Shown: piece by piece, positions 6,656 through 21,842 of the stretch
Numbering within the stretch: position 1 is the stretch's first letter
How the letters are laid out: the number at the start of each line of letters is the position of its first letter
Assembly (NCBI GenBank): GCA_020445165.1
Contig: JAGRHE010000009.1
Location: 1-36,651, forward strand
Length of the DNA: 36,651 bases
From: Gammaproteobacteria bacterium
GTDB lineage: Bacteria; Pseudomonadota; Gammaproteobacteria; Chromatiales; Sedimenticolaceae
Direction: 5' to 3'
The notes under the pieces: model-generated
Database searches by the model: none
Seen by the model: the letters and a program-made list of their open reading frames with translations, nothing else
Told to the model about the DNA's origin: nothing
Translations under genes and position numbers: made by a program

Positions 6656-7798
6656 ATGCATAAAACACTGATAGCCGTCGCTACTGCCGCTGCCTTGCTG
6701 CTCAACGTTGCCGCGCATGCGCGCGACCGGCAGTATGAGGATGTGTTCGTTGTCAAGGAGTCATCCGAGACGCCCACCGTCGTGATCAGCGGCAACGTGG
6801 TGCCCTTTAAGGCTGTCACGCTGGCGGCGCAGCTGCCGGGACGGGTCAAGTTCATCGCCGGGATAGAAGGTGAGTCGTTCGAAGCCGGTACCACGCTGGT
6901 CGCGATCGATGAAGATGAACTGATGGCCAAGCGCAGCGCGGCTTACGCTCAGCTCGCGGCCGCCGATGCTGAACTACGCAATGCCGGTGTCCAATATTCG
7001 CGCGAACTGTGGTCACCCCAGTCGTCGAATGCACCCGGCGGCATGGCGATCCCGAACCTGTTCGACCAGATGTTCACCCGGCCTGCCGAGGATTTCTTCG
7101 GCCAGCGCGATCGCGGTGCCGAGCGCAGTGCTGACCTTTATGCATCCAGTACACGAATGGAACAGGCGCGCAGCGCGATGTTGCGGGCTCAGTCGGAGAT
7201 CCGCGCGATTGATGCAAAGCTGCGCGATGCGAAAAGCCTTGCGCCCTTCGACGGCGTGATCCTGGAAAAGTACGTCGAGGAGGGTGATACCGTGCAACCC
7301 GGTCTGCCGCTGCTCAAATTTGCCGATGTGACATGGCTGCAGATCGAGGCGGATGTGCCGGCGCAGCTCGCGCAGGGCCTGCAACCGATGAGCGTGCTGC
7401 AGAACGCGGCAACCTTCGATGATCATCCCGAACCTGTCGCGGTGCGTGTCGCCCAGGTATTCCCGATGGCTGACGTGCAGCGTCACACCATTAAAGTGAA
7501 GCTCGATATCCCGCAGGGGGTCTCCAAGCCGGGAATGTATGCCCGCGTGCTGATTCCGGATTCCTCGGGCCCCGTGCGCAGCCAGCTGCCGGTGATTCCG
7601 AGCACTGCCATCCGCTATCGGGGCAGCCTGCCGGTCGTTTACATCCAGAACGAGAACAGTGAGCCTGAGCTGCGCATGATCCGTCAGGGTAAGCAGCTCG
7701 ACAACGGCATGACGATGGTGTTGTCCGGGATCGCGCCGGGCGACCGCGTCTACCCCAATCCGGGGCCCGACATCATGAGCAGAACCCGCAGCGAGTAG
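6656..7798 (+). CDS. RND efflux periplasmic adaptor (membrane fusion protein)
   Basis: A 380-residue HlyD/AcrA-type adaptor linking an inner-membrane RND pump to an outer-membrane channel. It begins with a cleavable signal peptide (about 1-22, ending AHA). The lipoyl half-motifs flank a helical hairpin: PGRVKFIAGIEGESFEAG near 61-78 and APFDGVILEKYVEEGDTVQPG near 198-218. The hairpin (about 90-190) includes an unusual insertion rich in Asn, Pro and Phe around 120-155. Beta-barrel and membrane-proximal segments follow to the C-terminus. The permease gene begins 70 bases downstream. There is no lipobox, so it is probably periplasmic. No outer-membrane channel gene lies nearby, so a TolC-like protein must be encoded elsewhere. 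Substrate unknown. Confidence 0.9.
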   Translation: MHKTLIAVATAAALLLNVAAHARDRQYEDVFVVKESSETPTVVISGNVVPFKAVTLAAQLPGRVKFIAGIEGESFEAGTTLVAIDEDELMAKRSAAYAQLAAADAELRNAGVQYSRELWSPQSSNAPGGMAIPNLFDQMFTRPAEDFFGQRDRGAERSADLYASSTRMEQARSAMLRAQSEIRAIDAKLRDAKSLAPFDGVILEKYVEEGDTVQPGLPLLKFADVTWLQIEADVPAQLAQGLQPMSVLQNAATFDDHPEPVAVRVAQVFPMADVQRHTIKVKLDIPQGVSKPGMYARVLIPDSSGPVRSQLPVIPSTAIRYRGSLPVVYIQNENSEPELRMIRQGKQLDNGMTMVLSGIAPGDRVYPNPGPDIMSRTRSE

Positions 7799-7868: not shown

Positions 7869-9209
7869 ATGAGTGACACCGAGCAGCGCCCGCCGGGCGG
7901 CAACGAACCGAGTAACAATCCGGAAGCCAACCTCGGCCTGGCCGGGAGCATGGCCCGGTTCTTCATCAATTCGCCGCTGTCACCGCTACTGTACCTGGCC
8001 ATGCTGATGCTGGGCGTGTTGGGACTGCTGGCAACTCCGCGCCAGGAGGATCCACAGATCTCGGTGCCGATGATCGACCTGATCGTGCAGTACCCTGGTG
8101 CCGAACCGGAGCAGGTCGCGTCGCTGGCCGTGCAGCCCCTCGAGCGGATCATGTACGAGATCGAAGGCGTCAAGCACGTCTATTCGGCCAGCCAGCGCGG
8201 TATGGGTGTGGTCACGATCCAGTTCGAGGTCGGCGAGGGCATGGAGCCTTCGCTGGTCAAGGTCAACGACAAGCTCGAATCCAATATGGATCGTATTCCG
8301 CCCGGTGTCATGCCGCCGTTGGTCAAGGCGAAAGGCATCGACGACGTACCGGTCGTGACCCTGACCTTGTGGTCGGAGCGGGACTACAACGGCGATGGTA
8401 TCCCGGACGTCGATGACTCGCAGCTGCGCCGCCTGGCGCAATCGGTCCTTCAGCACATCAAGGAAATTCCCGAAACCGGCAACAGTTTCGTGGTCGGTGG
8501 ACGTGCCGAGCAGGTCACCGTCGAGGTCTACCCGGAGCGACTGGCCGGCTTTGGACTCAGCCTGGCCCAGGTCGCCCAGGCCATCACCGCGAGCAACGTC
8601 GAACAGCAGATGGGCGGGGTCGAATCGGGCGGGACCCACATGATGGTCGTGTCCGGTGCTTTCCTGGAAACCGTCGAAGACATTCAGCGCCTGCAGGTCG
8701 GCAGTCACAACGGCGTACCTGTCTATGTCAGCGACGTCGCCGACGTACGCCAGGGACCGGAAGATGCGACTCAGACCGTGGCCTATTACAGCGGTGCCGC
8801 GTCTGAAGATCCGGATCGCGCGATCAGCGTGCCCGCAGTCACGATTGCGGTGGCCAAGAAGAAAGGCACCAACGGCGTCGAGGTTGCAGAAGCCATCCTC
8901 GAGCGGGTGGAGAACCTGCGTGGCCGCCTTATCCCGAATGATGTGAACGTCAGCGTGACGCGCAACTATGGGCAGACAGCGGAGCAGAAGGTCAACGACC
9001 TGATTTTCAAGTTGTTCATCGCCACCATGTTCGTGTTCTTCCTCGTGTGGATCGCGTTCCGGGCGCTGAAGCCGGCGTTCGTCGTGTTGTTCGTCGTGCC
9101 GGTGGTGTTGCTAACTGCTGTTCACGATCCTGTGCGCGTTGCTGCTCGATTTCACCATCGACCGGGTATCGCTGTTCGCGCTGATTTTCTCGATCGGTAT
9201 ACTGGTTGA
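7869..9209 (+). CDS. RND permease, N-terminal fragment (frame broken near 9117)
   Basis: First part of an AcrB-type proton-driven exporter: cytoplasmic N-tail, TM1 at about 37-55 (LSPLLYLAMLMLGVLGLLA), the first periplasmic porter/docking region, then TM2-TM3 at the end. The family-like sequence stops after VVLFVVPVVLLT. The following residues (AVHDPVRVAARFH...) are out of frame and end at 9209. The natural continuation begins at 9118 in the next frame, so one extra base, most simply G9117, splits the gene. An aspartate-rich loop at residues 172-183 resembles a calcium-binding EF-hand/dockerin loop. As it stands this 446-residue product lacks the proton-relay TM4. Real mutation and sequence error cannot be separated here. 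Confidence 0.85.
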   Translation: MSDTEQRPPGGNEPSNNPEANLGLAGSMARFFINSPLSPLLYLAMLMLGVLGLLATPRQEDPQISVPMIDLIVQYPGAEPEQVASLAVQPLERIMYEIEGVKHVYSASQRGMGVVTIQFEVGEGMEPSLVKVNDKLESNMDRIPPGVMPPLVKAKGIDDVPVVTLTLWSERDYNGDGIPDVDDSQLRRLAQSVLQHIKEIPETGNSFVVGGRAEQVTVEVYPERLAGFGLSLAQVAQAITASNVEQQMGGVESGGTHMMVVSGAFLETVEDIQRLQVGSHNGVPVYVSDVADVRQGPEDATQTVAYYSGAASEDPDRAISVPAVTIAVAKKKGTNGVEVAEAILERVENLRGRLIPNDVNVSVTRNYGQTAEQKVNDLIFKLFIATMFVFFLVWIAFRALKPAFVVLFVVPVVLLTAVHDPVRVAARFHHRPGIAVRADFLDRYTG

Positions 9210-12024
9210 CGATGCCATTGTGGTAGTCGAGAACATCTACCGGCGATGGCTCGAGGAAGGTCAGACCGATACTGCCACCGCGGTCGATGCGGTGCGCGAG
9301 GTCGGCAACCCCACGATTCTTGCCACCTTGACCGTCATCGGCGCACTGCTGCCGATGGGTGCTGTGTCCGGCATGATGGGACCCTACATGCTGCCGATTC
9401 CGGTTCTGGGTTCGGTGGCCATGGGTATCTCGCTGTTTGCGGCCTTCGTATTCACGCCATGGTTTGCCATTCATGGCATGTTCCGGCCGTCGATGGAGTA
9501 TCTCGAGAGCGCCGAGAAGCGTGAACACAAGGAGGCCGAGTGGCTTGAGGGTCTGTATCGGCGGATCCTGATCCCTATGATCCACGACCGACGCAAGGCG
9601 CGGCTGTTCAAGCTCGCCATGTGGGGCGTGCTGCTGCTGATGTGTTCCTTTTTCTATTTCAAATGGGTCGCAGTCAAGATGCTGCCGCTCGACAACAAGC
9701 CGGAGTTCTCTGTCGTGCTCGACATGCCGGAAGGCACGCCGCTGGCAGACACCGGCAACATGGCGCACGTGATCGCCGACCGGTTGCGCCGTATGCCCGA
9801 GGTCACGGCGGCGCAGATCTACGTCGGAACAGCGCGGCCGTTCGATTTCAACGGCATGGTCCGACACTACTACCTGCGCCAGTCGCCGTGGCAGGCTGAG
9901 GTGCAGATCCAGTTGCTGGACAAGACCGAGCGCTCCCGCTCGAGCCACGAGATAGCGGTCGATGCGCGTACCCAGATCACGGCGCTGGTCGAGGGGACCC
10001 AGGCGCGATTTGCGGTGGTCGAAATGCCGCCGGGGCCGCCCGTGCTGCAATCGGTGGTGGCCGAGGTACACGGCCCTGACCCGGAAACCCGCCGCCAGGT
10101 GGCCAGGGACCTGACGACCATTTTCGCGCAGACTGAGAGCCTGCGTGAGCCGTACGACTACTGGCACTTCGAAGTCGACAACCAGAAGGCCCAGCGTCGT
10201 GGAATCTCCGTCGAGAGCATCAACCGTGAGCTGTCGATGGCGCTCGGCGGTTACGTGCTGGGCGACGTGAAGCAGCGTGCCGGTCATGAGCCGATCAACA
10301 TCGTGATCCAGGTGCCGATGGCCGAGCGTTCCCAGATCAACCGCCTCGGCGACATCCTGGTGCAGTCGGCATCGACCGGTGCCGCGGTGCCGCTGCGCGA
10401 ACTCGGTACGTTCGAGCGCCGTACCGAATCGCACATCATCTACAACAAGGACCTGCGTCCGGTCGAGTACGTGGTTGCCGATGTCGGCGGCCGCCTGGCG
10501 GCACCCATCTATGGCATGCTGCAGGTCGAAGACAAGCTGATGGAGTTGGGCTGCAAGACGCCCGACAATGTCCACCTGTGCGATCACATGTACTACACCG
10601 GGCCGCCACCCGATGACAGCAGGTCGGCGATCGAATGGGCTGGCGAGTGGACCGTCACCTACGAAACCTTTCGTGACATGGGCATCGCGTTCGGTGCGGC
10701 ACTGATCCTGATCTACATCCTTGTGGTTTGGGAATTCGGAAACTTCCGCATACCTGCCCTGATCATGGCGCCAATCCCGTTGACCCTGCTGGGCATCATC
10801 CCGGCGCACATGCTGTTCTTCCAGATGGGCTGGGGTGGCGAGTTCACGGCGACGTCGATGATCGGCTGGATCGCCCTGGCCGGCATCATCGTGCGTAACT
10901 CGATTCTGCTGGTCGATTTCTCCGTGCATCGAATCCAGGAAGGCGATTCGGTCGTCGACGCGGTCATCACCTCCTGCAAGACGCGAACCCGGCCGATCCT
11001 GATCACTGCACTGGCGCTGGTGTGCGGTTCGTCGGTGATCTTCTTCGATCCGATCTTCCAGGGCATGGCGATTTCGCTCGCCTCGGGTGTGCTGGTCTCG
11101 ACCATGCTCACCCTGGTCGTGATCCCGCTCGGATGCGTCGCGGCCGCTGACTCGCTGTGTGCGGTGGCCGGCACCAAGTGCCACAAGTTCACCCGCGGTC
11201 AGGAGCCGGACGGTGGTCCCGACGGCGGACCGGACGGCCCCCAGGGTGGCGGTCGCCCGAAAGTGGGGGATCCGCTGTGGGTCAAAGCCTGGGGTGGTTT
11301 CGCCAGCGTGTTGTTCACGACGATCGGGGCAGTGGTAGCGCTGGTTGGCGCTGTCGGCGGTCTGTTCAAGCGCAAACAGCCACGGCCGGCGCACAAGGCG
11401 GACCGTCCGCCTGTGGTCGCGGCTTCCACGGGGTCACGAAAAGCCGACGACATCGAAGGGGCGGCCAAGTCGATCAGCGAGCCGGTGAAGGCGATTTCTG
11501 AGCAGGACGACGAGCCGAGCGCAGCGTCGGTCGCGGCCGCTTCGAACGAGGCCGCGGCGCCGGTCCAGCCCGCGAAGAGGCCGCCTCAAGCAGCGGCGAG
11601 TGATAGAAAGTCCGCCGAAAGCGAGGAAGCTCCTGCCCCGAAGTCGGTGCGAAAAACCGCATCGTCCGCGAAGCGAGCTGCCGCGAAGAAGGTGACGGTC
11701 CGCAAGTCGACCGCCGTTGCGGAGCGGGGTGATGCCGGCACACCGGCAACCGATGCCAGCGCGTCGGAAGATGGGAAGAAGCAGTCGGGCGCGACCAAAG
11801 CCAGGACGGCCAAGTCAACGGCGACGGATGCTGCATCGGGCAAGCGGGCGGCAGCCAAGGCGACACCTGCGAAGGCCGATACGGCGAAAGCAGCGAAGCC
11901 CGGTAAGGTCCGCGCACCGGTGGCGATTCAGTCGAAAGTTGCCTCAAGTCGCAAGAAAACCGCAGGAAGGCGGGGTATCCAGTTGAAAAGTCTGGGAAAA
12001 ACTGGTGGAGACGGGCTAAACTGA
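9139..12024 (+). CDS. RND permease, C-terminal fragment with Lys/Ala-rich tail
   Basis: Continuation of the RND exporter. The frame is open from 9115, and the first in-frame ATG is at 9139. TM4 carries the proton-relay pair D24-D25 in GILVDDAIVVVEN. The second periplasmic region and TM7-TM12 follow to about residue 680. Beyond the normal family end there is a Gly/Asp/Pro linker (11200-11260), an extra hydrophobic segment (719-743), and about 217 residues dominated by Lys, Ala, Ser, Pro and Arg (744-961) that resemble histone H1 tails. With the frame restored the protein would be about 1,385 residues, against roughly 1,050 for typical RND permeases. No ribosome site is visible at 9139, so the fragment is probably not made independently. 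Confidence 0.85.
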   Translation: MLLDFTIDRVSLFALIFSIGILVDDAIVVVENIYRRWLEEGQTDTATAVDAVREVGNPTILATLTVIGALLPMGAVSGMMGPYMLPIPVLGSVAMGISLFAAFVFTPWFAIHGMFRPSMEYLESAEKREHKEAEWLEGLYRRILIPMIHDRRKARLFKLAMWGVLLLMCSFFYFKWVAVKMLPLDNKPEFSVVLDMPEGTPLADTGNMAHVIADRLRRMPEVTAAQIYVGTARPFDFNGMVRHYYLRQSPWQAEVQIQLLDKTERSRSSHEIAVDARTQITALVEGTQARFAVVEMPPGPPVLQSVVAEVHGPDPETRRQVARDLTTIFAQTESLREPYDYWHFEVDNQKAQRRGISVESINRELSMALGGYVLGDVKQRAGHEPINIVIQVPMAERSQINRLGDILVQSASTGAAVPLRELGTFERRTESHIIYNKDLRPVEYVVADVGGRLAAPIYGMLQVEDKLMELGCKTPDNVHLCDHMYYTGPPPDDSRSAIEWAGEWTVTYETFRDMGIAFGAALILIYILVVWEFGNFRIPALIMAPIPLTLLGIIPAHMLFFQMGWGGEFTATSMIGWIALAGIIVRNSILLVDFSVHRIQEGDSVVDAVITSCKTRTRPILITALALVCGSSVIFFDPIFQGMAISLASGVLVSTMLTLVVIPLGCVAAADSLCAVAGTKCHKFTRGQEPDGGPDGGPDGPQGGGRPKVGDPLWVKAWGGFASVLFTTIGAVVALVGAVGGLFKRKQPRPAHKADRPPVVAASTGSRKADDIEGAAKSISEPVKAISEQDDEPSAASVAAASNEAAAPVQPAKRPPQAAASDRKSAESEEAPAPKSVRKTASSAKRAAAKKVTVRKSTAVAERGDAGTPATDASASEDGKKQSGATKARTAKSTATDAASGKRAAAKATPAKADTAKAAKPGKVRAPVAIQSKVASSRKKTAGRRGIQLKSLGKTGGDGLN

Positions 12025-12087: not shown

Positions 12088-12651
12088 TTGGTCGCGCGAC
12101 TGTTTTTCTTCGTGCCTGTAGTGGCGATTGGCATCGCGATCTTGCCGCTGCAAACAACGCCATGGGCGGCCCAGGCGGCCGGCGCGGGCGCCTATGTCGC
12201 CACCGAACGCTCCCAGTTCAGGCCTTGGTCCTACCAGCCGGACTCGGCCACGGCGCGCAGCCGGACAGCCGGGTCGCCGTCGAAACCCCGTGTCTCTGCG
12301 ACCGTTCGTGCAAGTTCACGTGAAATGGATCTTTTCACCGACCGCGCAGGTGCTCGCAAGGCTATACCGGTAACGCGTGGCAAGGAGCTTGGACTGCAAT
12401 TCCGGCCCGATGACAGTGCCGGCCCCTATGGACAATCTGCCGTGCCCGCAGTGCCGCCCGGGGTGGAGCAGGATCAGAGCCAGTTCCGCCCCCTTCAGCC
12501 TCGTCGGAAACCGACCTATGAGGAACTGGAGATGCAGGCGGATTCGCAATTCCAGGGGCCGGTTTTGCAGCCGGTTCTGCCTTACCCACCGATGCCCACG
12601 CTGCCGCCACGCTACCCGGGGATGGTCCCGCCACCTTGGATGGGTTACTGA
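12088..12651 (+). CDS. Predicted secreted protein with three QFRP motifs (FRP protein A)
   Basis: I do not recognise this family. The 187-residue product starts at a TTG with a GGGAG ribosome site at 12076-12080. It has an N-terminal signal peptide (hydrophobic 5-22, cleavage probably after AQA at 31). The mature part is low in hydrophobic residues and has the tetrapeptide QFRP at 43-46, 104-107 and 132-135, plus a related SQFQGP at 153-158. The C-terminus is Pro/Tyr/Trp-rich (YPPMP, PPPW). There are no cysteines. It lies 63 bases after the RND permease and upstream of two more secreted proteins with the same motif. Export is well supported; function is unknown. Confidence 0.7.
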   Translation: MVARLFFFVPVVAIGIAILPLQTTPWAAQAAGAGAYVATERSQFRPWSYQPDSATARSRTAGSPSKPRVSATVRASSREMDLFTDRAGARKAIPVTRGKELGLQFRPDDSAGPYGQSAVPAVPPGVEQDQSQFRPLQPRRKPTYEELEMQADSQFQGPVLQPVLPYPPMPTLPPRYPGMVPPPWMGY

Positions 12652-12793
12652 ATAGGGTGGAATCGGTGTTGACGAGGTTTGCTATTTCGAGCACCTGAAG
12701 AATATGAGACGCCAGTCTTAAGTTCCTGATTGGAAAGCTTCGGGTTGGCGGTCATTCAGACTCATCCACAGTCACTACACAGCTTTCACAGAC

Positions 12794-12825
12794 TTTTCCA
12801 CAAGCTTGTCCACAAGATCTTGTGG
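12794..12825. promoter_or_regulatory. Overlapping palindromes and DnaA-box-like 9-mers
   Basis: Two adjacent perfect palindromes, ACAAGCTTGT (12800-12809) and CCACAAGATCTTGTGG (12810-12825), end immediately before the -35 hexamer of the next promoter. The same stretch has 9-mers close to the DnaA box: TTTTCCACA (12794-12802) and TTGTCCACA (12806-12814), with TCATCCACA further upstream (12762-12770). The placement is that of an operator. Whether the binder is DnaA or a dimeric repressor is unknown. Confidence 0.5.
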
Positions 12826-12853
12826 TTGACACCCATCTGTTCGCGTATATATT
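12826..12853 (+). promoter_or_regulatory. Sigma70-type promoter of the FRP-motif cluster
   Basis: -35 TTGACA (12826-12831), 16-base spacer, -10 TATATT (12848-12853). The predicted start is near 12860, giving a leader of about 50 bases to the GTG at 12909. The promoter probably drives FRP proteins B and C and the downstream ATPase and membrane genes, which have no comparably good promoter of their own. Confidence 0.65.
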
Positions 12854-12908
12854 GTGCAATATGGTCAGAACGTTGCGCAGGTTTGCGTTTCTGCAGATAG
12901 GGGGGCGT

Positions 12909-13490
12909 GTGAGCGGACGTATCGGACGGGTAAGCACTGTTTGGGGGTTCGCCGGCCTGTTGGCGGTTGGTATGCTGACCAGCGAAGCGGTTGTGGCCTT
13001 CCAGGGTGGATGGCAGGGTCCCTCCGGCGGCACGGCGAAGCGACTGTATTTCCGTCCGGTGGCCGCTGCGTCACGACAGGCCCCGTCGAACCGCTGGCGG
13101 CCGCAGCAGCGCATCTCACAACCCGTTCGAAGCACACGGCATGCGGGCAGGGTTGCGTATCCGCTGGGTCTACCGGCTCCGGCCGCATCGTCCAGTTTCT
13201 CGGTCGTGCCGCGCGGGGTTTCGTCGGCCAGCGATTCGCTGGGTCGCCAGTTCAGGCCGCAGGTCGCCGGGCCGGCAGCTTCGCTGACGCAAAATGCGGA
13301 TTCAGTAGCGAGTGTGCAGGGTTTACAATCCCGTTTTCGGCCTGCATCAAACAAGCGCAAGCAGCCGTATGAACTGAGCGCTGCCGGTCGCAACAACATT
13401 CAACAGCCATACGCAGCGGCATATGTGTCGCCCCGCTACATGCCGGTTTCGTCGTTCGCGGGACACGGCATCTATTGGCCGCTGCATTGA
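12909..13490 (+). CDS. Predicted secreted protein with four [F/W]RP motifs (FRP protein B)
   Basis: An unrecognised 193-residue protein. I choose the GTG at 12909 because it follows a run of G residues suited to ribosome binding and gives a compact signal peptide (basic MSGRIGR, hydrophobic 8-30). The in-frame ATG at 12861 would lie at the predicted transcription start. The mature region is rich in Ser, Ala, Arg, Gln and Pro. It contains YFRP (47-50), RWRP (62-65), QFRP (114-117) and RFRP (142-145), and ends with an aromatic segment GIYWPLH. There are no cysteines and no known domain. It shares the motif with the genes on both sides, suggesting a paralogous or co-functioning set. Confidence 0.7.
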   Translation: MSGRIGRVSTVWGFAGLLAVGMLTSEAVVAFQGGWQGPSGGTAKRLYFRPVAAASRQAPSNRWRPQQRISQPVRSTRHAGRVAYPLGLPAPAASSSFSVVPRGVSSASDSLGRQFRPQVAGPAASLTQNADSVASVQGLQSRFRPASNKRKQPYELSAAGRNNIQQPYAAAYVSPRYMPVSSFAGHGIYWPLH

Positions 13491-13594
13491 ACCGATCCAT
13501 GCCGGGGCTTTCGTGTCGGCATGTGTGACCTGACAGGCGACCGCGGTCCAGCTGCTGGCCGGCAGCCGAAACACGAATAATCGAGAGGAAAGAC

Positions 13595-14524
13595 ATGAGA
13601 AGTACGGGACAAGTTGTTGTTTTAGCAGGAATCCTCTTGGTAGGCGCCTCCATCACTTCGGCCAGTGCCGGGACCGGGTTTGGTCAGCAATGGCGTCCGG
13701 CCGACGGCTACTTGGTCACTCAGCCGGCGTCGTCCGCCCCGTACACGACCAGTACCGCGCGCACCCATGTGCCGGCAACGGTACAGCGGATAGCCAATGT
13801 ACCGTCGTTCCGGCCACGGTCCGTTCGCCTGGCAAATCGCTTCGCCGAGTTGCGTGGTGCGCCGCGCGCCGATGGATACCAGCAGTTGGCTGCGCACAGT
13901 ACCGGCATCCAGCAATATCAGCGATACACTCCCTACCAGCCATACAGCATGCCGACGCCGATGCCGGCTTCACAGGGTTTTGCGGCGCCGGTCTGGGCTG
14001 GGCCCTTTGGCCAGATGGCTCAGGCATTTCCGAATCCGATGCCAATGTTCAACCGGACGTTCGCGTGGCGTCAGCCTGCCGACCAGTGGTCCGGGTATCC
14101 GCCGGCAGCGCCGAGCTATGGGCAGCACGCCTTCCCGCAATATCCGGTGTCCGCTTACCGCGATTTCGGACCGGCTTCCGCAGCGGTGTACCGTGCTTCG
14201 TTCCCAGGCAACTGGCGGCCGCTGGCTCAGGCGCGTCTGAATCCGGTCCAGCATCGGTCAGCTGCTGATCTCGCGGCTACGTCGAGGGGCTATGCGCACA
14301 CCTACCAGGATCGCATAGTCGCGGCCGGCAATTGGCGGCCACTGGAAACGGGAAGTCAGGCTTCGTTGTCGCGCCATGCAGCGAACTTCCGCCCGCAGGG
14401 CTATGGCCGCTCGACATGGACGGATCGGACTGCATCTACAGACCCCGCTCCGAGTCTGCTGCCGGGGTGGGCGACCACCTTCAACGACAGCGACGCGGCG
14501 TGCTCCTGGTGTAGCGGTTCCTGA
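13595..14524 (+). CDS. Predicted secreted protein with five [F/W]RP motifs and C-terminal CxxC (FRP protein C)
   Basis: The largest of the three motif proteins, 309 residues. A good ribosome site (GAGAGGAAAG) precedes the ATG. The signal peptide covers about 1-25 (ending SASA). Motifs: QWRP 32-35, SFRP 71-74, NWRP 206-209, NWRP 246-249, NFRP 264-267, plus a scrambled AWRQP near 157. The middle (105-195) is rich in Tyr, Pro, Gln, Met and Phe and looks disordered. The only two cysteines form CSWC (303-306), six residues from the part-end, suggesting a disulfide, metal or covalent attachment role. The ATPase gene starts 18 bases after its stop. No family recognised. Confidence 0.7.
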   Translation: MRSTGQVVVLAGILLVGASITSASAGTGFGQQWRPADGYLVTQPASSAPYTTSTARTHVPATVQRIANVPSFRPRSVRLANRFAELRGAPRADGYQQLAAHSTGIQQYQRYTPYQPYSMPTPMPASQGFAAPVWAGPFGQMAQAFPNPMPMFNRTFAWRQPADQWSGYPPAAPSYGQHAFPQYPVSAYRDFGPASAAVYRASFPGNWRPLAQARLNPVQHRSAADLAATSRGYAHTYQDRIVAAGNWRPLETGSQASLSRHAANFRPQGYGRSTWTDRTASTDPAPSLLPGWATTFNDSDAACSWCSGS

Positions 14525-14542
14525 TCACCGGATGCGATCTGC

Positions 14543-15178
14543 ATGATCACGGTAATTGGCAGTCTGAAGGGCGGGTCGGGCAAGAGCACGGTGACCTTCA
14601 ACCTGGCTGTCTGGCTGGCCCTCGCCGAACGCAATGTTGCCGTGATCGATGCGGACCCCCAGGCCACGTTCAGTGATGTCCTCGACGTGCGCATCGAAGA
14701 GGGCTACGAGCCCAGCATCCTGCGTCTCGACAGCGCCGCGCTGACTGACAAGTCGCTGCGTGCAGGGTACGACGATATCTTGATCGACGTCGGCACCGCG
14801 TCGATGGATAACTTCCGTCAGGCGCTCACGATCGCCGATCGGATCCTGGTGCCCGTCCCGCCGAGCCAGGCTGACATCTGGTCAACCCAGCGCTTTCTGA
14901 GATACCTCGAATCCGTCGAGCGCAAGCGCAAACCCGAGGTGCTCGGCTTCATCAACCGGGGTGACACTCACCGCGCGATTCGGGAGTCGGACGAGGCCGC
15001 AGCAGCGCTGGTCTCGCTGCCCGGCATCCGTTATCTCAAACCACGCCTTTCACAGCGTACTGCGTATCGTCGGTCGTTCAGTGAGGGCCTCGCCGTGTTC
15101 GAGCAGGAGCCACGTGGTAAGGGCGCAGCAGAGTGGAATGCGCTTGCCGCCGTGCTTTATGCCGATATCCTGACATGA
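14543..15178 (+). CDS. Orphan ParA/MinD-type ATPase
   Basis: A 211-residue deviant-Walker-A ATPase. Motif KGGSGKST (9-16) has the signature first Lys; Walker A' follows as VIDADPQ (about 34-40), and the Walker-B-like strand is DDILIDVGTA. Such proteins position cargo such as plasmids, chromosomes, chemoreceptors, carboxysomes or secretion complexes by ATP-dependent surface or nucleoid binding. No ParB gene or parS-like repeat is seen next to it, so chromosome partitioning is unlikely. It sits between the secreted FRP proteins and a membrane TPR protein, 7 bases before the latter, suggesting it localises their assembly. The MinD-type C-terminal amphipathic helix is not obvious. Confidence 0.85.
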   Translation: MITVIGSLKGGSGKSTVTFNLAVWLALAERNVAVIDADPQATFSDVLDVRIEEGYEPSILRLDSAALTDKSLRAGYDDILIDVGTASMDNFRQALTIADRILVPVPPSQADIWSTQRFLRYLESVERKRKPEVLGFINRGDTHRAIRESDEAAAALVSLPGIRYLKPRLSQRTAYRRSFSEGLAVFEQEPRGKGAAEWNALAAVLYADILT

Positions 15179-15185
15179 TCGAGCG

Positions 15186-15860
15186 ATGCCTGCCGGCGCG
15201 TTGATCACCATTCTCGGCTGGTTTGCCAGCCATCTGATCGTGTTCACACTGATCGGGTTCGCGGTGATCGGGTTTTTCGTGTTGGATCGGCAGCCGCTTG
15301 CGCAGGCCCCGCTCGCTGCCGAAGAAAGCGTTTCAGTAGCGCCGGTGTCAAAGCGCCCTCCGGTTGAAGCCACCGCGGCTGTGACAACCAACCCGGCTGG
15401 CGCGATGCCAGAGGTCGCTCCCGCCGAGTCCAAGTCGCCGCCAGCTCGTGCACCGAAGCTCATCGGCGGCAGCATCCCGGTTTACGATCTGAAGAATCGG
15501 CCGGCGCCCGAAGGCGAGGGCTTCCGGCCCGGTGGGGTCCCGGCCGAGCCCCCCATGGAGCTGCCAAGCGATCGCGAATCGCTCCTGCAGAATGCCCGGC
15601 GCGCATTCTGGAACGGTCAGTTCGAGGCTGCCGAAGCGGTTTACATGGACCTGATTGCGCAGTATCCCGATGATGCCGACATATTCGGAGAGCTTGGCAA
15701 CCTTTACGAGGGGATGGGGCAGGCTGACCTGGCAAGAGATGCGTTTTTCGAGGCGGGGGTTCGTCTGCGAAACGCCGGTGAGCGGAAGAAGCTTTCTCAA
15801 GTAATTGAAATTTTGAAGAAATCAGGTGACGAGCGGTACATGTCGCTGAGCGATCCCTGA
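15186..15860 (+). CDS. Membrane-anchored TPR protein carrying one FRP motif
   Basis: A 224-residue protein with an N-terminal transmembrane anchor (about 14-33), a Pro/Ala-rich linker (about 36-125), and a C-terminal helical part with TPR-like repeats: LLQNARRAFWNGQFEAAEAV and then DIFGELGNLYEGMGQADLARDAFFEAG. The linker holds GEGFRPGG, the same FRP tripeptide repeated in the three secreted proteins upstream. The order anchor-linker-TPR resembles scaffold proteins of envelope machines, where the TPR part binds partners. The gene follows the ParA-type gene by 7 bases and is very likely cotranscribed. Function is inferred only from layout. Confidence 0.7.
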   Translation: MPAGALITILGWFASHLIVFTLIGFAVIGFFVLDRQPLAQAPLAAEESVSVAPVSKRPPVEATAAVTTNPAGAMPEVAPAESKSPPARAPKLIGGSIPVYDLKNRPAPEGEGFRPGGVPAEPPMELPSDRESLLQNARRAFWNGQFEAAEAVYMDLIAQYPDDADIFGELGNLYEGMGQADLARDAFFEAGVRLRNAGERKKLSQVIEILKKSGDERYMSLSDP

Positions 15861-15968
15861 CCGTGATCGCCGCTGGGCGACTGAATGCCCAGAACGGCGC
15901 TGTTCCGTAGTGACGGGGATTTATGGTACTTTGATGGGAGACCACTCAGAGTGCCCCCCGAGGATCCC

Positions 15969-16466
15969 GTGAGCAACGCCACCGAAACCGCCGACAAGGT
16001 CGTTGACCCGAATGCCGAGTACAATCGTCTCGCAGAGGTATTCGAGTCCAGCGCGCGTCGCTGGGAACTCATCGTGTATCCGTCACTGTTCGCGTTCATC
16101 ATCCTTGCGGCATACGGTTTCTACCTGATTTACAACCTGGCCAAGGACGTCCACTACCTGGCAATCAGCGTTGACACCAACATGACGATGCTTTCGGGCA
16201 ACATGCAGAACGTTTCCGAAAACATGGGCCAGTTGACGGCGAACATCCGTGCCATGACGGTAACGATGGACTCGATCGACAACAAGGTCGCAACGCTCGA
16301 ACCGATGCTCGCCAACCTGGATTCGATGGATGGCGCAATCCAGTCGATGACTCATGCTACGCACACCATGGGCAAGGCAACCCAGTACATGCAGGCGGAC
16401 ATGGGCAGGCTCAGCTATAGCGTCGGCCGCCCGATGTCATTCATGAATGCCTTCATGCCGTGGTAG
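15969..16466 (+). CDS. Single-pass membrane protein with Met-rich coiled coil
   Basis: A 165-residue protein of unknown family. The GTG at 15969 is preceded by GAGG with a 5-base spacer; an upstream ATG at 15885 lacks a ribosome site. An N-terminal polar segment of about 35 residues precedes one transmembrane helix (VYPSLFAFIILAAYGFYLIY). The remaining ~95 residues form a predicted long helix with Met, Asn, Thr and Asp at regular spacing, including 15 methionines. It ends PMSFMNAFMPW. The pattern recalls extracytoplasmic coiled coils of MCP- or MCE-like proteins, but none is matched. It is the last gene before the strong terminator at 16485-16512 and probably belongs to the FRP cluster. Confidence 0.65.
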   Translation: MSNATETADKVVDPNAEYNRLAEVFESSARRWELIVYPSLFAFIILAAYGFYLIYNLAKDVHYLAISVDTNMTMLSGNMQNVSENMGQLTANIRAMTVTMDSIDNKVATLEPMLANLDSMDGAIQSMTHATHTMGKATQYMQADMGRLSYSVGRPMSFMNAFMPW

Positions 16467-16558: not shown

Positions 16559-18673
16559 TTAGCCCAGGTGTTGTTCTTCGTAGGTGATGGTGCCCGAGGG
16601 TGCCTGCAGGAAATAGCCCTGGATGTAGTTGACGCCGACATTCCACAGGATCGCCAGGCTGCTCGCATCCTCAACTCCGCTGGCGATGGTTTTGTACCCC
16701 GCCGCCTGCAGCCTGCTGTTGATGTCACTCATCTTGTCCTGTTGATCAGCATTGCTGGCCAGGTCGCGCATCAGTTCCGGGGACAGTTTGACCACGTCGA
16801 CCTGGATGTGTTCCAGCAAGGCATCCACAGCTGCAGAGTCGCTGAAGTTGTTGACTGCGATCCGGCAGTTGATCTTGCGTAGACCGCTGATCAGTTCCTT
16901 GGCTGGGGTCAGCGAGTGGCGCAGATCGCTTTCGCGAAACTGGAACGTGAGCCAGGATCCCTTGGCACGAAATTCACGCAGGCAGTCCACGATCCACAGC
17001 AGCATCGAGTCGTCCTCGATGCCAGCGCGTGACAGGATGATGTAGAAGATGATCTTCTTGCCATCGCGTCGGTGACTGGCCAGTTCGCGAATCGCATTTC
17101 GTACCACCCAGCGGTCGACTTCGGCCAGTCGGCTGGCGTCACGCGCCGGGGATAGGAAGACGTCGGGCACCAGTTCCTTGCCGGAATCGTCCACCAGGCG
17201 CAGGTAGACGGAATAATTCTCGCGGGTATCACCCTGCAGGCTCACGATCGGTTGGTACTTGAGACGGAAACCGTCGTTGGCCAGCGCATTGTCGATGAGC
17301 CGCACGACCGCAGCATCGGCTTCGGCCAGGTGCCCGGTGTCGCCGGGAATTTCGTCATTGTAGAACACGACCCGATTCTCGCCCTCGGACCGAGCGATGC
17401 CGGTCGCGCGGCAGGACCGGTTGATCAATTCGTGTGCAGTGACCTCGTCGCCTCTCTCGGTGCGGGTCACGCCGATCGAGTAGGCCGGTTTGATCGGTGC
17501 ATCCTTGATGCTTTTGAAGGCATGTGCGCGCAGGTTGTGCAGGCAGCGTTCGGCGACTTCCAGTGCCGGTTCTTCATCGTCGCAGAGAATCATGAAGTCG
17601 TGGTCGCCGAAGCGGGCCAGAGTGTGCGCACGGGTCGCGGTTGCGGCAAGCACGCTGGCGGCTTCGGTAAGCATCTGTTCGGCACAGCCGAATCCGCAGT
17701 TTTCACGCATTGCCGCATAGTTGGTGATCGAAAGCTGCACCAGTGCGTGGCCATTGCCATCGCGTTCCTGCTTACTCACCAGGGCTTCGAGGCGCTCCAT
17801 GAACGACTGCCGGTTGAAGAATCCGGTTTGAGCGTCCTTGCTGGTGAGTTCTTCGATACGCTTCTGCAGGGCCAGGTTCTGGCTCTGGTCGCGAATCATC
17901 AGCTGCGTGCAGTTTTCTCCATCAATGCTTGCCGGCGCGAATTCCATGCGCGCCTTGAATTCACTTTTGTCGGCAGTCACGCAGCTGAATTCTTCGGTGT
18001 GCTTGCCGGTTTCATCGACCTTGCGCAAAGCGGCCTTGAAGCGCGCCCGCGAATCCGGGCCGATCATATCCATGATGGGGAGTCCATCGATCTCATCGGC
18101 CGATTCATAGCCGAACAAATCAAGGTATGCCTGGTTGGTGTTCAGGTACATCCCCTCGTGCACGTAGGCGATGGCGTCCCGTGAGCTCTGTACGAGCACA
18201 TTGCTGCGTGCCTCTGCCTCGTCGAGTTGGCGCTTCAGTCGGGCGACTTCGCTGCGCAGTTGCAGTGTCTGATGCTCGCGACGTATCGCCAATGCGACGT
18301 GTTCCTCGTCGTTGATATCGATCAGGTCCTGGAGGCCGTGGTCGATCGCCATGCTGCGTACGTCCACCGGGTTTTTGCATACCAGCAGGATGCTCGCGGC
18401 AGGATTCAGCGCACGCACCTTGCCGATCGCCTCGACCGGCGAAATCGTCTGCGCATCTGCGTTGATGACGACCAGCTCGCAGCCATCTGCGCTGAGCAGT
18501 TGGGAAAGGGTTTCCGTGGTATCGGCGGTCTTGAGATGAGCGGCCTGGCCCTGGTTGCGCAGGGCATTGGCGAAGCCATCGGCGACGCCGAGTGCGCAAC
18601 CGATCGCGAGAAGTTCGACCGGGGTTTCCGGGGCGTCCGAATCCACGGGTAAGGTTTCAGCGAAAGCAGACAA
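16559..18673 (-). CDS. fimX: FimX-like c-di-GMP receptor (REC-like/PAS/degenerate GGDEF/degenerate EAL)
   Basis: A 704-residue multidomain protein with the architecture of Pseudomonas/Xanthomonas FimX, which binds c-di-GMP and controls type IV pilus assembly at the pole. Order: receiver-like domain (about 20-135), coiled coil (135-160), PAS (about 160-265), GGDEF (275-445), EAL (455-700). The GGDEF signature is degenerate, RFGDHDF (354-360), and the EAL signature is replaced near YSVYLRL (487-493). Cyclase and phosphodiesterase activities are therefore improbable. The EAL C-terminal motif YIQGYFLQAP (683-692) remains, compatible with nucleotide binding. The gene follows its PilZ-like partner by 57 bases on the same strand. 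No pilus genes are in view, so the pilus role is inferred from family. Confidence 0.85.
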   Translation of the reverse strand: MSAFAETLPVDSDAPETPVELLAIGCALGVADGFANALRNQGQAAHLKTADTTETLSQLLSADGCELVVINADAQTISPVEAIGKVRALNPAASILLVCKNPVDVRSMAIDHGLQDLIDINDEEHVALAIRREHQTLQLRSEVARLKRQLDEAEARSNVLVQSSRDAIAYVHEGMYLNTNQAYLDLFGYESADEIDGLPIMDMIGPDSRARFKAALRKVDETGKHTEEFSCVTADKSEFKARMEFAPASIDGENCTQLMIRDQSQNLALQKRIEELTSKDAQTGFFNRQSFMERLEALVSKQERDGNGHALVQLSITNYAAMRENCGFGCAEQMLTEAASVLAATATRAHTLARFGDHDFMILCDDEEPALEVAERCLHNLRAHAFKSIKDAPIKPAYSIGVTRTERGDEVTAHELINRSCRATGIARSEGENRVVFYNDEIPGDTGHLAEADAAVVRLIDNALANDGFRLKYQPIVSLQGDTRENYSVYLRLVDDSGKELVPDVFLSPARDASRLAEVDRWVVRNAIRELASHRRDGKKIIFYIILSRAGIEDDSMLLWIVDCLREFRAKGSWLTFQFRESDLRHSLTPAKELISGLRKINCRIAVNNFSDSAAVDALLEHIQVDVVKLSPELMRDLASNADQQDKMSDINSRLQAAGYKTIASGVEDASSLAILWNVGVNYIQGYFLQAPSGTITYEEQHLG

Positions 18674-18730
18674 GAGTCATCCCCTGCAAGCAGGTCTTTG
18701 GTAACGAATCGACATTACGCGTGATAGCCA

Positions 18731-20638
18731 CTAGAGGTTGCCCCAGAGGTCATTGAATTCGTCACCTGGCCGCTCACCGCTGTTCGGCTCGGCTTCGCTG
18801 GTGGCAACCGATTCGAAATGATAGCGTGCAAAAGCGCTGCTGAACTCGACCAATCGGGTGAGCCTGATCAATTGCTCCTGACCGCCACGGCTCAGCAGCA
18901 GGTCAGTTCCCGTTTGCAGGCTCATCGTGCTCATTATCAGGCTGGCGGTCGAGTTGCTCGCGGGATCGGAATCGGTGACCACCAGGCATTTGAAGGAGGG
19001 TGCATCACGCTTGGCCGCCTTGGGTTTTTCGCGGACATCCGCGGCCTCGCAACGCGTCGAGATGACCTCGAGGCCGAGGTCGATCGCCTTCTCGTCGACC
19101 CGTTTCATCCAGCGAATCACGCCAAGGCCGTAAGTGCTTCGATCTGCCGGCGATTCGACGCCTATCAGCTCACCGATCTTCACCCGTGGAATGCCATCGC
19201 CCTGCCAGCGGATACAATAACCGCCGGCACTCTCGTTGACCGTCTTGACTGCGTGTGGCTCGTGCTCGTGCTCCGTGGTTGCCGGTGCATCGCTGGCCTC
19301 ACCGAATTCATCGAGGCGTGAGGGGGGCAGGCCCGCAATCGGTTCGAGCTGACTCTCGACGAACAGCGAGTCGGTTGCCAGTTCACTGTCCAGTGGCGCG
19401 AGATGAACGTTCTCGAGGCTGCCCGAGGACCAGCGGATCTTGCGTCGCGCGCCGGCTTCGGGCGAATCGGTCTCGTCCAATGAGAAGACCGGCGTGCGTG
19501 TGGTCGAGTAGGGCAGCGAGTCTTCTGCCTGCAGATTGCCATACACCGAATGCAGTCCGGCGACGACGCGCAGGTCGAAATTGAGCTTGGTGCGCACGAA
19601 GCGGCGGTCCGGCGGGCGACTCCAGGCCAGGATCAGAAGTCGCAGCAGAGGCCGCGTCAACGGAGACCTCGCCGCCTGCGTGCCGCTACGGTTGTCCCAC
19701 GGTGCCTGTTCGAAGTCGGAACGTAATTGCTTCAACAGTTCACGTACGTCGAGGATCGCGATCCGTTTGCCGGGGACCGGCGTGCGCAGTGAGTTGTGCA
19801 TCGGTGCCGAGTCGGCCCAAAGGTCGACGTTGAAACGTCCGAGGCTGGTTCCACCATCGTCTTCGTTGAGGATCGTCGTGTAACGCGACCAGTCGTCCAG
19901 GTGTGCGAACAACAGGCGTGCATGGCTCTGACGTAGGCGATGAGGGGTGGAACTGGCGAACAGCATCAGCGCCTTGAACAGCTCCTCGATGCTGGTGCTT
20001 GCGTTTTTCTGACGACCATCGTCGGCCTTTACCGGCGTGCGATGGATGTTGTTCTGTGAGGCGTAGGCATAGATGCTGTTGATCTCGCGCCACATGCCTT
20101 CCGGCCAGCCGCTGTAGACCAGCGCATGCTGCAGCATGGTCTGGCCGAGGTAGTGCAGTGCGCGATGCAGCGCGATGATCAACAGTCGCCGGTCGAAACC
20201 GCTGCTCGATCCCGAGATCATCCGTTCGATGATGATCTTGTACGAGGTGGCCAGTTCCTTTTGCAGTTCGCGTGCGAGTGCCGCGGTCTTGGCGCCCTTG
20301 GTCGAAAGAGGCAGGCCGACGTCGATGTAGTGTTTCTGCAGGTTGCTGGTGATGTATTCCACCGGAGGGCGGAATTTTTCCACCGTCTTGGCACGCAGGA
20401 GATCGGGGATCTCGATCCGGTTGAACTCGACCAGGGTGTTGTAGATCCGGCGCGCGGTCTCGCCGATGTTGGCCATCGGCAGGGATTCGAACCAGGCCTC
20501 GGTCTCTTTCGGGTCGAGCAGCAGGTTGTCGGCCTTGGCGGCGGACTGCTGCGGTATCTGCAGGCCGAGCAGCGGGCGTGAATTGGTATCGTCTCGGCCG
20601 GCTCCCTGTGGCGTGCTTGTATCGTCGGTCGCAGTCAA
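18731..20638 (-). CDS. Large helical protein with C-terminal PilZ-like domain, FimX partner
   Basis: A 635-residue cytoplasmic protein without signal peptide or membrane segment. The first ~370 residues are mostly helical. A Ser/Asp-rich linker follows (about 370-460), then a PilZ-like segment (about 465-530) with NESAGGYCIRW (468-478), matching the second PilZ motif ([D/N]xSxxG), and VKIGELIGVES and GLGVIRWMKR. The first PilZ motif (RxxxR) is not evident, so direct c-di-GMP binding is uncertain. The immediate linkage to fimX suggests the pair acts together in c-di-GMP control of surface motility. I recall similar genes beside fimX in pseudomonads, but the biochemical role is not known to me. 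Confidence 0.65.
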   Translation of the reverse strand: MTATDDTSTPQGAGRDDTNSRPLLGLQIPQQSAAKADNLLLDPKETEAWFESLPMANIGETARRIYNTLVEFNRIEIPDLLRAKTVEKFRPPVEYITSNLQKHYIDVGLPLSTKGAKTAALARELQKELATSYKIIIERMISGSSSGFDRRLLIIALHRALHYLGQTMLQHALVYSGWPEGMWREINSIYAYASQNNIHRTPVKADDGRQKNASTSIEELFKALMLFASSTPHRLRQSHARLLFAHLDDWSRYTTILNEDDGGTSLGRFNVDLWADSAPMHNSLRTPVPGKRIAILDVRELLKQLRSDFEQAPWDNRSGTQAARSPLTRPLLRLLILAWSRPPDRRFVRTKLNFDLRVVAGLHSVYGNLQAEDSLPYSTTRTPVFSLDETDSPEAGARRKIRWSSGSLENVHLAPLDSELATDSLFVESQLEPIAGLPPSRLDEFGEASDAPATTEHEHEPHAVKTVNESAGGYCIRWQGDGIPRVKIGELIGVESPADRSTYGLGVIRWMKRVDEKAIDLGLEVISTRCEAADVREKPKAAKRDAPSFKCLVVTDSDPASNSTASLIMSTMSLQTGTDLLLSRGGQEQLIRLTRLVEFSSAFARYHFESVATSEAEPNSGERPGDEFNDLWGNL

Positions 20639-20791
20639 TGTTTTCGCCAGTCAGTCGAGTTTTTGGGATGAATCGTTATCCGCCACCGGCGAAGCGTTTC
20701 TGCCGCCCGGCGATTGCATGCGCAAGTTCCTGCCAGACACCAAGTTTAGCCGCAGGTCGTCGATCTGTGCAGCCTGTCGGCGTCGTGCCGC

Positions 20792-21802
20792 TCATGCCGT
20801 GACAGTCACCTTGTTCGGGGCCCCGGGGACCTCGCGAACCAATTTGGGCACCAGGTAACCCGGCAGGCTTGCACTCAGCTGTGCCAGCAATGCCTTTGCG
20901 CGCGATTCGTCGACGTCGAAGTGGGCCGCGCCGGCCACCGGGTCCAACAGATGCAGGTAGTACGGCAGTACGCCCGCGCTGAACAAGGACTCGCTGAGCC
21001 TGACCAGGGTATCGGCGCTATCGTTGATGTCCTTGAGCAGAACCGCCTGATTCAGCAATGTCGCACCGGCGCCGCGCAGGGCGGCGAGGGCCGCGCCGAG
21101 TTCGCGCGTGATCTCGTTCGGGTGATTGGCGTGGATGACGACGACCACCGCCAGCCCGCACTCCTGCAGCATTGCGCACAGCGCTGGCGTGACCCGGCCA
21201 GGCAGGACCACCGGCAGGCGCGTATGCAGCCGCAGCCGTCGCAGCCGGGTCAGCCGGGCGGTATCGGCGAGCAAGGTTGCAATGCGCCGGTCCGACAGGC
21301 TCAGCGGGTCACCGCCACTGAGGATCAGCTCATCGACGTCGGGCATCGCGGCGAGCGTTTCCAATGTTGACTGCCAATGGCGCAGCAGCGACTGCTCGGC
21401 GTAAGGGAAATGGCGGCGGAAGCAGTAGCGACAGTGGACAGCGCAGGCACCTGTGGTGATCGCCAATGCGCGACCGCGATATTTCTGCAGCAGTGCCGTG
21501 TCACGAAGGGCGTTCAGATCACCGACCGGGTCGCTTGCATAGCCGGGTTCGGCGCTGTGTTCGGCCTGCATCGGCAGGACCTGCCGCAGCAGCGGATCGT
21601 GCGGGTCGCCGGACCGCATCAGCCGGGCGAAATAACGTGGAACGCGCAGCGGGAAGGGATTCGCTTGGTCGAGGTCGACACCCGCCAGGTCGGCCTGGTC
21701 GAGGGCAAGGAACTCCAGCAGTTCGCGCGGACTGTTGAAGGCATCGGCGAGGTCCTGCTGCCACTGTTCAGGCTGCAAGCCTTGGGGGGAAAGGGGTATC
21801 AT
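20792..21802 (-). CDS. epmB: EF-P beta-lysylation protein EpmB (lysine 2,3-aminomutase)
   Basis: Radical SAM enzyme that converts (S)-alpha-lysine to (R)-beta-lysine for attachment to elongation factor P. The 336-residue protein contains the radical SAM cluster motif CAVHCRYCF (C120, C124, C127) followed by RRHFPYAE. The [10 protein letters not shown] motif and the PLP-binding Lys331 in APNKVTV near the C-terminus match E. coli EpmB in spacing. It is divergent from efp, separated by only 40 bases, so the promoters of both must overlap. With efp and epmA next to it the modification pathway is physically complete apart from the hydroxylase EpmC, which is not seen here. Confidence 0.95.
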
Positions 21803-21842
21803 TAGGGGCTTTGGTTGCTCTTGTGTTTTTGACGAGGATCGA

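What the first reader, a model, noticed from the sequence alone, without database searches (positions are those of the whole stretch)
12088..16466. Candidate undescribed envelope system: secreted [F/W]RP-motif proteins with an orphan ParA ATPase and a TPR scaffold
Seen: three consecutive exported proteins carry 3, 4 and 5 copies of [Q/N/S/R/Y]-[F/W]-R-P. The membrane TPR protein two genes further on carries one more (GFRP). That makes 13 copies in about 900 residues, where chance from ordinary composition would give fewer than one. The proteins are otherwise dissimilar and low-complexity, so the motif is the conserved element. Between them sits a ParA/MinD-type ATPase without ParB, and the set ends with a Met-rich membrane coiled coil and a strong terminator. 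Inference: the motif is a docking, processing or polymerisation signal, and the ATPase/TPR/membrane proteins localise or assemble the secreted products.
Basis: partly seen in the sequence, partly recalled or inferred. Interest (0 to 1): 0.82.

Follow-up and report, generated by a model that had tools for sequence, protein, structure and literature searches.

The report
Sulfur-globule coat and positioning operon
This gene cluster, found in bacteria that store sulfur as tiny beads inside the cell envelope, probably makes coat proteins for those beads and a molecular tether that may place the beads in the cell; neither role has been tested at the bench.

Summary
F1-F3 carry 3, 4 and 5 [FW]RP motifs and the TPR protein one, against about 0.5 expected from shuffles. 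Motif columns are the best-conserved columns of F1-F3. The unit is larger than reported: it starts with an HlyD-type adaptor and an RND permease (frameshifted here). The order RND-FRP-ParA-(TPR)-coiled coil is conserved across Chromatiales sulfur oxidisers. Two things were missed. (1) The permease ends in a long low-complexity tail closed by RRGI[RQ]LK: the motif is in 71 of 75 loci with ParA (the other four have close variants) and 1 of 10 without. (2) In distant relatives, genes like those of sulfur globule proteins sit in the same slot: 14 of 25 loci, none in 1,077 kb of flanks. In 369 Gammaproteobacteria the coiled-coil family and Pfam SGP co-occur (52 of 56 SGP genomes), also among dsrA genomes. 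Best reading: FRP proteins are periplasmic sulfur-globule coat or adaptor proteins, and ParA engages the permease tail to place the pump-globule assembly. Globule association is well supported for the operon; ParA-tail binding is inferred from covariation; pump cargo and motif function are unknown.

The parts
6656..7798 (+). Periplasmic adaptor (membrane fusion protein), 380 aa
   Evidence: found; Pfam HlyD_D23 3.8e-13; orthologue precedes the RND gene in L009, L026, L048, L054 and L078
7869..9209 (+). RND permease, N-terminal part; reading frame broken between this ORF and the next
   Evidence: NCBIfam RND_permease_2 3.2e-53; one continuous ORF of 1362 aa in L009
9139..12024 (+). RND permease, C-terminal part, with long Lys/Ala-rich tail (about 11134-12021)
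   Evidence: Pfam ACR_tran 8.9e-74; tail of the window 296 aa
11968..11988 (+). RRGIQLK, conserved end motif of the permease tail, proposed ParA partner peptide
   Evidence: motif in 71 of 75 ParA-bearing loci and 1 of 10 without; coordinates checked
12088..12651 (+). F1: exported-looking protein, 3 [FW]RP (12217, 12400, 12484)
   Evidence: orthologues L001, L003-L006
12822..13490 (+). F2: exported-looking protein, 4 [FW]RP (13050, 13095, 13251, 13335); true start probably 12861
13595..14524 (+). F3: exported-looking protein, 5 [FW]RP (13691, 13808, 14213, 14333, 14387), C-terminal CxWC (CSWCSGS, 14501-14521)
   Evidence: CxWC in 6 of 6 sequences aligned, window included
14543..15178 (+). ParA-family ATPase, deviant Walker A KGGSGKST
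   Evidence: Pfam CbiA 1.1e-15; NCBIfam ParA_partition 1.8e-38, below its cut-off; nearest solved structure ParF; alignment of 21
15186..15860 (+). Membrane-anchored TPR protein, one GFRP (15522)
   Evidence: Pfam TPR families, best E 1e-4, all below curated cut-offs; syntenic in part of the relatives
15969..16466 (+). Single-span Met-rich coiled-coil-like protein ('Met' family), C-terminal GRPMSFMNxFMPW
   Evidence: 1411 homologues, alignment of 22, model of one long helix 14-153 with mean pLDDT 67

Best explanation
A sulfur-globule coat-and-positioning operon. Shown: gene content, conserved order, motif conservation, covariation of the permease tail motif with ParA, and linkage and co-occurrence with sulfur globule protein (SGP) genes. 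Inferred: F1-F3 are Sec-exported low-complexity proteins that join the protein coat of periplasmic sulfur globules, with [FW]RP as a repeated short binding element (aromatic-arginine contacts). The RND permease and its adaptor sit in the inner membrane beside the globule, together with the TPR and coiled-coil proteins, and handle a hydrophobic cargo such as sulfur species or lipid. The cytoplasmic tail of the permease carries a positively charged end peptide that binds the nucleoid-bound ParA, so that ParA spaces or tethers the pump-globule assembly along the cell, as McdA does for carboxysomes.
For: Synteny: RND, ParA and Met in this order in 62 loci including the window. FRP proteins: 40 of the 51 loci with at least 300 bases between RND and ParA have a + strand ORF with two or more motifs; 0 of 62 on the opposite strand. 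Motif columns invariant far above other columns (F2: 12 of 12 against 6 of 210). Tail motif: 71 of 75 with ParA, 1 of 10 without (Fisher 5e-9 is printed there for a slightly relaxed pattern, 72 of 75 against 1 of 10). In L047 the FRP, ParA and TPR genes are missing and the tail end reads RKSVRIK; its genome has no close ParA. SGP-like ORFs inside the RND-to-Met interval in 14 of 25 distant loci; over all 86 loci 16 ORFs in 316 kb inside against 0 in 1,077 kb outside. Pfam SGP at or over cut-off for several. Co-occurrence of Met family and SGP in 369 genomes: 52 both, 25 Met only, 4 SGP only, 288 neither; within 117 dsrA genomes 46/18/4/49, p 4e-13. SGP in 27 of 27 genomes tested of the 80 fetched by the Met family, and in 0 of 14 control genomes.
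Against: In the window's own lineage no SGP-like gene lies in the operon (0 of 61 close loci), so the globule link there rests on orthology and on SGP elsewhere in relatives' genomes. 11 of 62 loci have no FRP gene between RND and ParA, and in another 11 no ORF reaches two motifs; 6 of the first 11 genomes were tested and still have SGP, so FRP proteins are dispensable. 25 of 77 Met-family genomes have no Pfam SGP match. Shared ancestry inflates both tests: only 4 independent tree pairs, where the sign test cannot reach 0.05. L140 has the tail motif without ParA at the locus. Tail length alone follows ParA weakly (1.7 of 4 pairs). No expression, localisation or binding data. Inactivating the globule protein SgpD did not change globule size or number in A. 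vinosum (PMC10386293, passages).
Confidence: 0.6

Rival explanations
1. A ParA-localised RND efflux pump that removes toxic sulfur species, lipids or metals. The FRP and SGP proteins are its periplasmic accessories; globules are not its target.
For: RND core and adaptor are the largest conserved parts; operons without FRP or SGP-like genes exist (L137, L138, L153, L154); DUF4412-like and DUF302 genes join the operon in relatives, which would fit a hydrophobic cargo.
Against: Does not explain why SGP-like genes sit in the operon in 14 of 25 distant loci and nowhere in the flanks, or why the Met family follows SGP among dsrA genomes.
Confidence: 0.2
2. A cell-surface or matrix assembly system: FRP proteins are exported to the outer membrane or beyond and the pump delivers lipid or protein parts of that layer.
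For: Low-complexity exported-looking proteins; tripartite-type adaptor and permease.
Against: No outer membrane factor or surface-layer gene was seen by eye in the five loci listed (no search was made); the association is with sulfur globule genes.
Confidence: 0.1
3. The motif is a by-product of biased composition, and the neighbours are unrelated housekeeping genes.
For: The proteins are low-complexity and rich in R and P; a codon-usage gene caller missed F1-F3.
Against: 0 of 5000 shuffles reach the counts; motif columns are the conserved ones; strand control 40 loci against 0.
Confidence: 0.03

Closest known systems
Sulfur globule proteins SgpA-D of Allochromatium vinosum (Pfam PF17228, SGP)
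   Same: Exported low-complexity proteins with regularly placed prolines (description of Sgp in PMC10386293, passages); SGP-like genes occupy the same operon slot in distant relatives.
   Different: F1-F3 match no Pfam family at E up to 1 and only a chance NCBIfam hit (F3, E 0.15); glycine is 7 to 9.5% against over 20% in the SGP-like ORFs (one search rule); they carry [FW]RP, and F3 has a CxWC end. In A. vinosum sgpA, sgpB and sgpC lie apart (locus tags in PMC10386293).
McdA-McdB carboxysome positioning and other ParA/MinD cargo systems
   Same: ParA-type ATPase beside its presumed cargo; proposed partner is a basic disordered peptide, as described for known partners (PMC10241942, passages).
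   Different: The peptide is at the C-terminus of a membrane transporter, not an N-terminus, and the cargo would be on the far side of the inner membrane.
ParF-ParG plasmid partition
   Same: ParF is the nearest solved structure by sequence (4dzz, 51 bits); ParG acts through a flexible basic tail (recalled).
   Different: No ParG-like gene was seen by eye in the operon; it holds a transporter.
RND efflux permeases (MdtB, AcrB, MexB type)
   Same: Full-length RND core with adaptor gene upstream.
   Different: Tail of 126-350 residues (median 235) in the 75 ParA-bearing loci, with a conserved end motif and linkage to ParA, TPR and coiled-coil genes.

Membership tests
ParA-family cargo-positioning system | Deviant Walker A motif with signature lysine | tested here: met
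   KGG[ST]GKST in all 21 aligned sequences; meaning of the motif recalled
ParA-family cargo-positioning system | Dedicated partner that binds the ATPase through a basic flexible peptide | tested here: inconclusive
   Candidate peptide RRGI[RQ]LK covaries with ParA; binding not tested
ParA-family cargo-positioning system | Cargo moves or is spaced on the nucleoid | not testable with these tools
   needs microscopy
SGP sulfur globule proteins (PF17228) | Match to the Pfam model | tested here: not met
   F1, F2, F3: 0 families at E up to 1
SGP sulfur globule proteins (PF17228) | Signal peptide and low-complexity mature part | tested here: inconclusive
   signal sequences judged by reading only, no program was run; low complexity by composition
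SGP sulfur globule proteins (PF17228) | Located on sulfur globules | not testable with these tools
   needs proteomics or tagging
Tripartite RND efflux system | RND permease and adaptor | tested here: met
   the window copy of the permease is frameshifted
Tripartite RND efflux system | Outer membrane factor | not tested
   none seen by eye in the five loci; no search made
ParABS chromosome or plasmid partition | ParB and parS | not tested
   no ParB-like gene seen by eye; neither ParB nor parS was searched

The most novel reading that the evidence does not exclude
A ParA ATPase in the cytoplasm positions and shares out a periplasmic storage organelle, the sulfur globule, by gripping the cytoplasmic tail of an RND permease whose periplasmic side is linked through TPR, coiled-coil and [FW]RP proteins to the globule coat. 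This would be a ParA system acting across a membrane, and [FW]RP a new coat motif.
Probability: 0.42. Interest if true: 0.88.

Novelty: new variant of a known kind. Interest (0 to 1): 0.77.

Why it matters
How sulfur globules are built, placed and inherited is open: the sections I read of a 2023 study name four coat proteins and no assembly or positioning machinery (PMC10386293). This operon is a ready set of testable genes that tracks globule-protein genes even among sulfur oxidisers. In 5.39 million open papers none holds 'sulfur globule' with 'ParA' as whole words; five hold 'sulfur globules' with 'ParA'. Of these five, two use the Portuguese or Greek word 'para', two are off-topic by title, and one (PMC11773610) only suggests ParA homologues for carbonate inclusions. 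If the tail binds ParA, it adds transporters and periplasmic bodies to the cargo list of ParA systems.

Tried and rejected
Composition artefact: rejected by shuffles, strand control and column conservation. A codon-usage gene caller was tried as a motif-blind way to define genes; it missed F1-F3 in the window, so its counts (39 motifs in 13,779 residues inside against 4.4 expected; 48 in 292,323 elsewhere against 54.4) are only a partial control. SgpD identity: I asked whether the coiled-coil protein of L116 finds a relative in eight genomes (seven Chromatiaceae, one Sedimenticola); 1 of 8 had a weak hit. The FRP protein of Marichromatium gracile finds only itself, named hypothetical. So I do not claim that an FRP protein is SgpD, nor that the exporter beside sgpD is this RND. 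A. vinosum itself was not identified among the genomes. AlphaFold of the Met protein gave one long helix at low confidence (mean pLDDT 67, pTM 0.25), so no fold search was made. An outer membrane factor, ParB and parS were not searched for. Supplements of papers could not be read. The lead that FRP proteins might be found unlinked elsewhere in these genomes was not followed.
Full report
Check of the observation. The three exported-looking proteins and the TPR protein carry 3, 4, 5 and 1 copies of [FW]RP in 942 residues; shuffling each protein gives about 0.5 in all, and 0 of 5000 shuffles reach the count in F1, F2 or F3. Thirteen other proteins of the window hold 4 copies in 5,863 residues. 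Orthologues of F1-F3 in five relatives (L001, L003-L006) were aligned with the window: invariant columns are 7 of 9 motif columns against 26 of 178 others in F1, 12 of 12 against 6 of 210 in F2, and 12 of 15 against 20 of 294 in F3. So the motif is the conserved element. F3 also ends in a CxWC in all six.

What the unit is. Upstream of F1 lie an HlyD-type adaptor (6656-7798) and an RND permease whose frame is broken in this window (7869-9209 and 9139-12024) but continuous in relatives such as L009. The Met-rich protein really starts near 15969. A search with it gave 1411 homologues, of which 120 were listed. A scan of genome contigs gave 212 relatives, of which the best 80 were kept. Those with genus names are Chromatiales sulfur bacteria (Sedimenticola, Thiocapsa, Halochromatium, Thiohalocapsa, Thiorhodococcus, Marichromatium, Lamprocystis, Thiolapillus and others); many are unnamed Gammaproteobacteria or Chromatiales genomes. 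dsrA is over its cut-off in 26 of 27 of these genomes given (of 80); the 27th (G013, L029) had only a weak match.

Synteny and FRP genes. In 62 loci (61 plus the window) RND, ParA and Met occur in that order on one contig. In 51 of them the RND-ParA gap is at least 300 bases, and 40 of the 51 contain a + strand ORF of 80 or more residues with two or more [FW]RP; none of the 62 has one on the other strand. Of the other 11, I read seven (L038, L043, L052, L060, L061, L062, L069): each has an ORF with one FRP and an FRxDP-like variant. In 11 of 62 the gap is under 200 bases and no FRP gene lies between. Relatives add a DUF4412-like gene (below its cut-off) and a DUF302 gene.

The permease tail. 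Beyond the conserved core the permease carries a tail of 126-350 residues (median 235) in the 75 ParA-bearing loci counted, often rich in K, R and A, ending in or near RRGI[RQ]LK. To test the link with ParA I took 60 further regions around hits of the Met family in 369 Gammaproteobacteria. Among 86 loci with permease and Met and a complete permease end, 76 have ParA; one (L053) is masked and was dropped. The strict motif R[RK]GI[RQK][LI]K, set after seeing the close loci, is in 71 of 75 with ParA; the other four (L025, L051, L145, L151) have WRGIRLN, RRGIRLR, PRGIRIK and KRGIKLK. It is in 1 of 10 without ParA (the Fisher p of 5e-9 printed there is for a slightly relaxed pattern, 72 of 75 against 1 of 10). 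The exception, L140, comes from a genome with a more distant ParA (38% identity) elsewhere; of the other eight genomes without ParA at the locus, six have best hits at 27-35% identity and two have none. In Ca. Thiobius (L047) the FRP, ParA and TPR genes are missing and the tail end reads RKSVRIK; its genome has no close ParA (best 30%). On a permease tree of 48 of the 86 rows the lack of ParA needs 6 changes, at least 4 on well supported branches. Over random pairings, four independent pairs go the same way in 3.5 of 4 on average, the other way in 0.1 and do not differ in 0.4; so few pairs cannot reach p 0.05. Tail length alone (120 residues or more) goes the same way in only 1.7 of 4. RND permeases have both ends in the cytoplasm (recalled), so this peptide is where ParA is. 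Known ParA partners bind through a positively charged disordered N-terminus (PMC10241942, passages); here it is a C-terminus. The nearest solved structure is ParF.

The link to sulfur globules. In L116 the operon holds a protein like SgpA/B between permease and TPR; Pfam's sulphur globule family scores it at the cut-off (26.7; 25.7, just below, in the genome search). A composition rule (G over 20%, Y+N+W+F+M over 16%) was then made and kept. By it, 14 of 25 distant permease-Met loci have such an ORF between permease and Met: 5 of 8 in the regions seen before or while the rule was made (L101-L120) and 9 of 17 in those fetched later. 0 of 61 close loci do. Over all 86 loci 16 ORFs lie in 316 kb of intervals, 0 in 1,077 kb of flanks, 1 on the opposite strand. 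Pfam scores are at or over cut-off in L116, L117, L120, L128, L140, L146 and L155, below it in L141 and L151, and absent in L111, L115 and L144; of the two ORFs of L145 one was scanned, with no match. The genome search puts L152, and also L150 (missed by the rule), over cut-off by position. Across 369 genomes the Met family is in 77 and SGP in 56; both in 52, SGP alone in 4, Met alone in 25 (p 4e-39). Because both could simply mark sulfur oxidisers, I repeated it within genomes with dsrA (117 at E up to 1e-90: 46 both, 18 Met only, 4 SGP only, 49 neither; p 4e-13) and with soxB (150: 50, 19, 3, 78; p 3e-20). So the family follows globule proteins, not just sulfur oxidation. SGP is in 27 of 27 genomes tested of the 80 fetched by the Met family and in 0 of 14 control genomes. 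Shared ancestry inflates these p-values. The Met family is also wider than the operon: many of its genes stand without this RND or ParA, so genome counts are of the family, not of the whole operon.

How it most likely works. Shown: conserved operon, conserved motif, tail-ParA covariation, SGP linkage. Inferred: FRP proteins coat or bridge periplasmic globules; the TPR and coiled-coil proteins (one membrane span each by reading) and the permease form the membrane side; ParA on the nucleoid grips the tail and spaces the assembly. The cargo of the pump is unknown; a hydrophobic one would fit. SgpD shows that such a protein can be placed on globules by tagging (PMC10386293; abstract, introduction, discussion and passages seen). 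That paper says sgpD lies beside a hydrophobic/amphiphilic exporter; I could not show whether this is the same permease.

Comparison and novelty. F1-F3 are not members of PF17228 (tested, not met). The ParA belongs to the ParA family by its motif and hits, but the cargo and partner are not among those described in the passages read. Literature: no paper of the library holds 'sulfur globule' with 'ParA' as whole words. Five hold 'sulfur globules' with 'ParA': in PMC3397948 and PMC11172852 the word is the Portuguese or Greek 'para'; PMC11773610 suggests in one sentence that ParA, FtsZ or MreB homologues could place carbonate inclusions; two are off-topic by title. The rows listed show no paper on such an operon, judged by titles and abstracts of the listed rows only. 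In the passages seen of PMC11267869, PMC10892978, PMC3368242, PMC7787665 and PMC7356093 this cluster is not described.

Noticed in passing
window 7869-12024: The RND permease is split by a frameshift (two overlapping ORFs); relatives such as L009 have one ORF. Sequencing error or a real break could not be told apart.
   Followed up: partly
window 14501-14521; L001, L003-L006: F3 ends in CxWC-(S/G)GS in 6 of 6 sequences aligned; a possible anchor for sulfur chains or a redox site.
   Followed up: no
L026 6710-7441 and 9190-9768; L116 9896-10678: A DUF4412-like protein (below cut-off) and a DUF302 protein (L026) lie inside the operon of relatives; ORFs similar to the DUF4412-like one recur in L048, L054 and L078 by reading.
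   Followed up: partly
window 4648-6171 and 16559-22415; L009, L048, L054, L078: By reading, a dynamin-like GTPase upstream (also L054, L078; Pfam for L078) and a GGDEF-EAL gene plus EpmB and EF-P genes downstream are shared with relatives; the wider neighbourhood is conserved too.
   Followed up: no
L104-L106, L108-L110, L112-L114, L119: Met-family genes without this RND or ParA in the fetched region. In L119 a MinD-like ATPase ORF follows the Met gene. G376 has two copies (L101, L136).
   Followed up: no
window 12826-12853: Promoter-like site (11 of 12) just before the probable start of F2.
   Followed up: no
L145 4501-6000; L128 5551-6498: FRP-bearing ORFs (5 and 2 motifs) stand beside SGP-like genes in the same operon, so the two protein kinds are not strict alternatives.
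   Followed up: no
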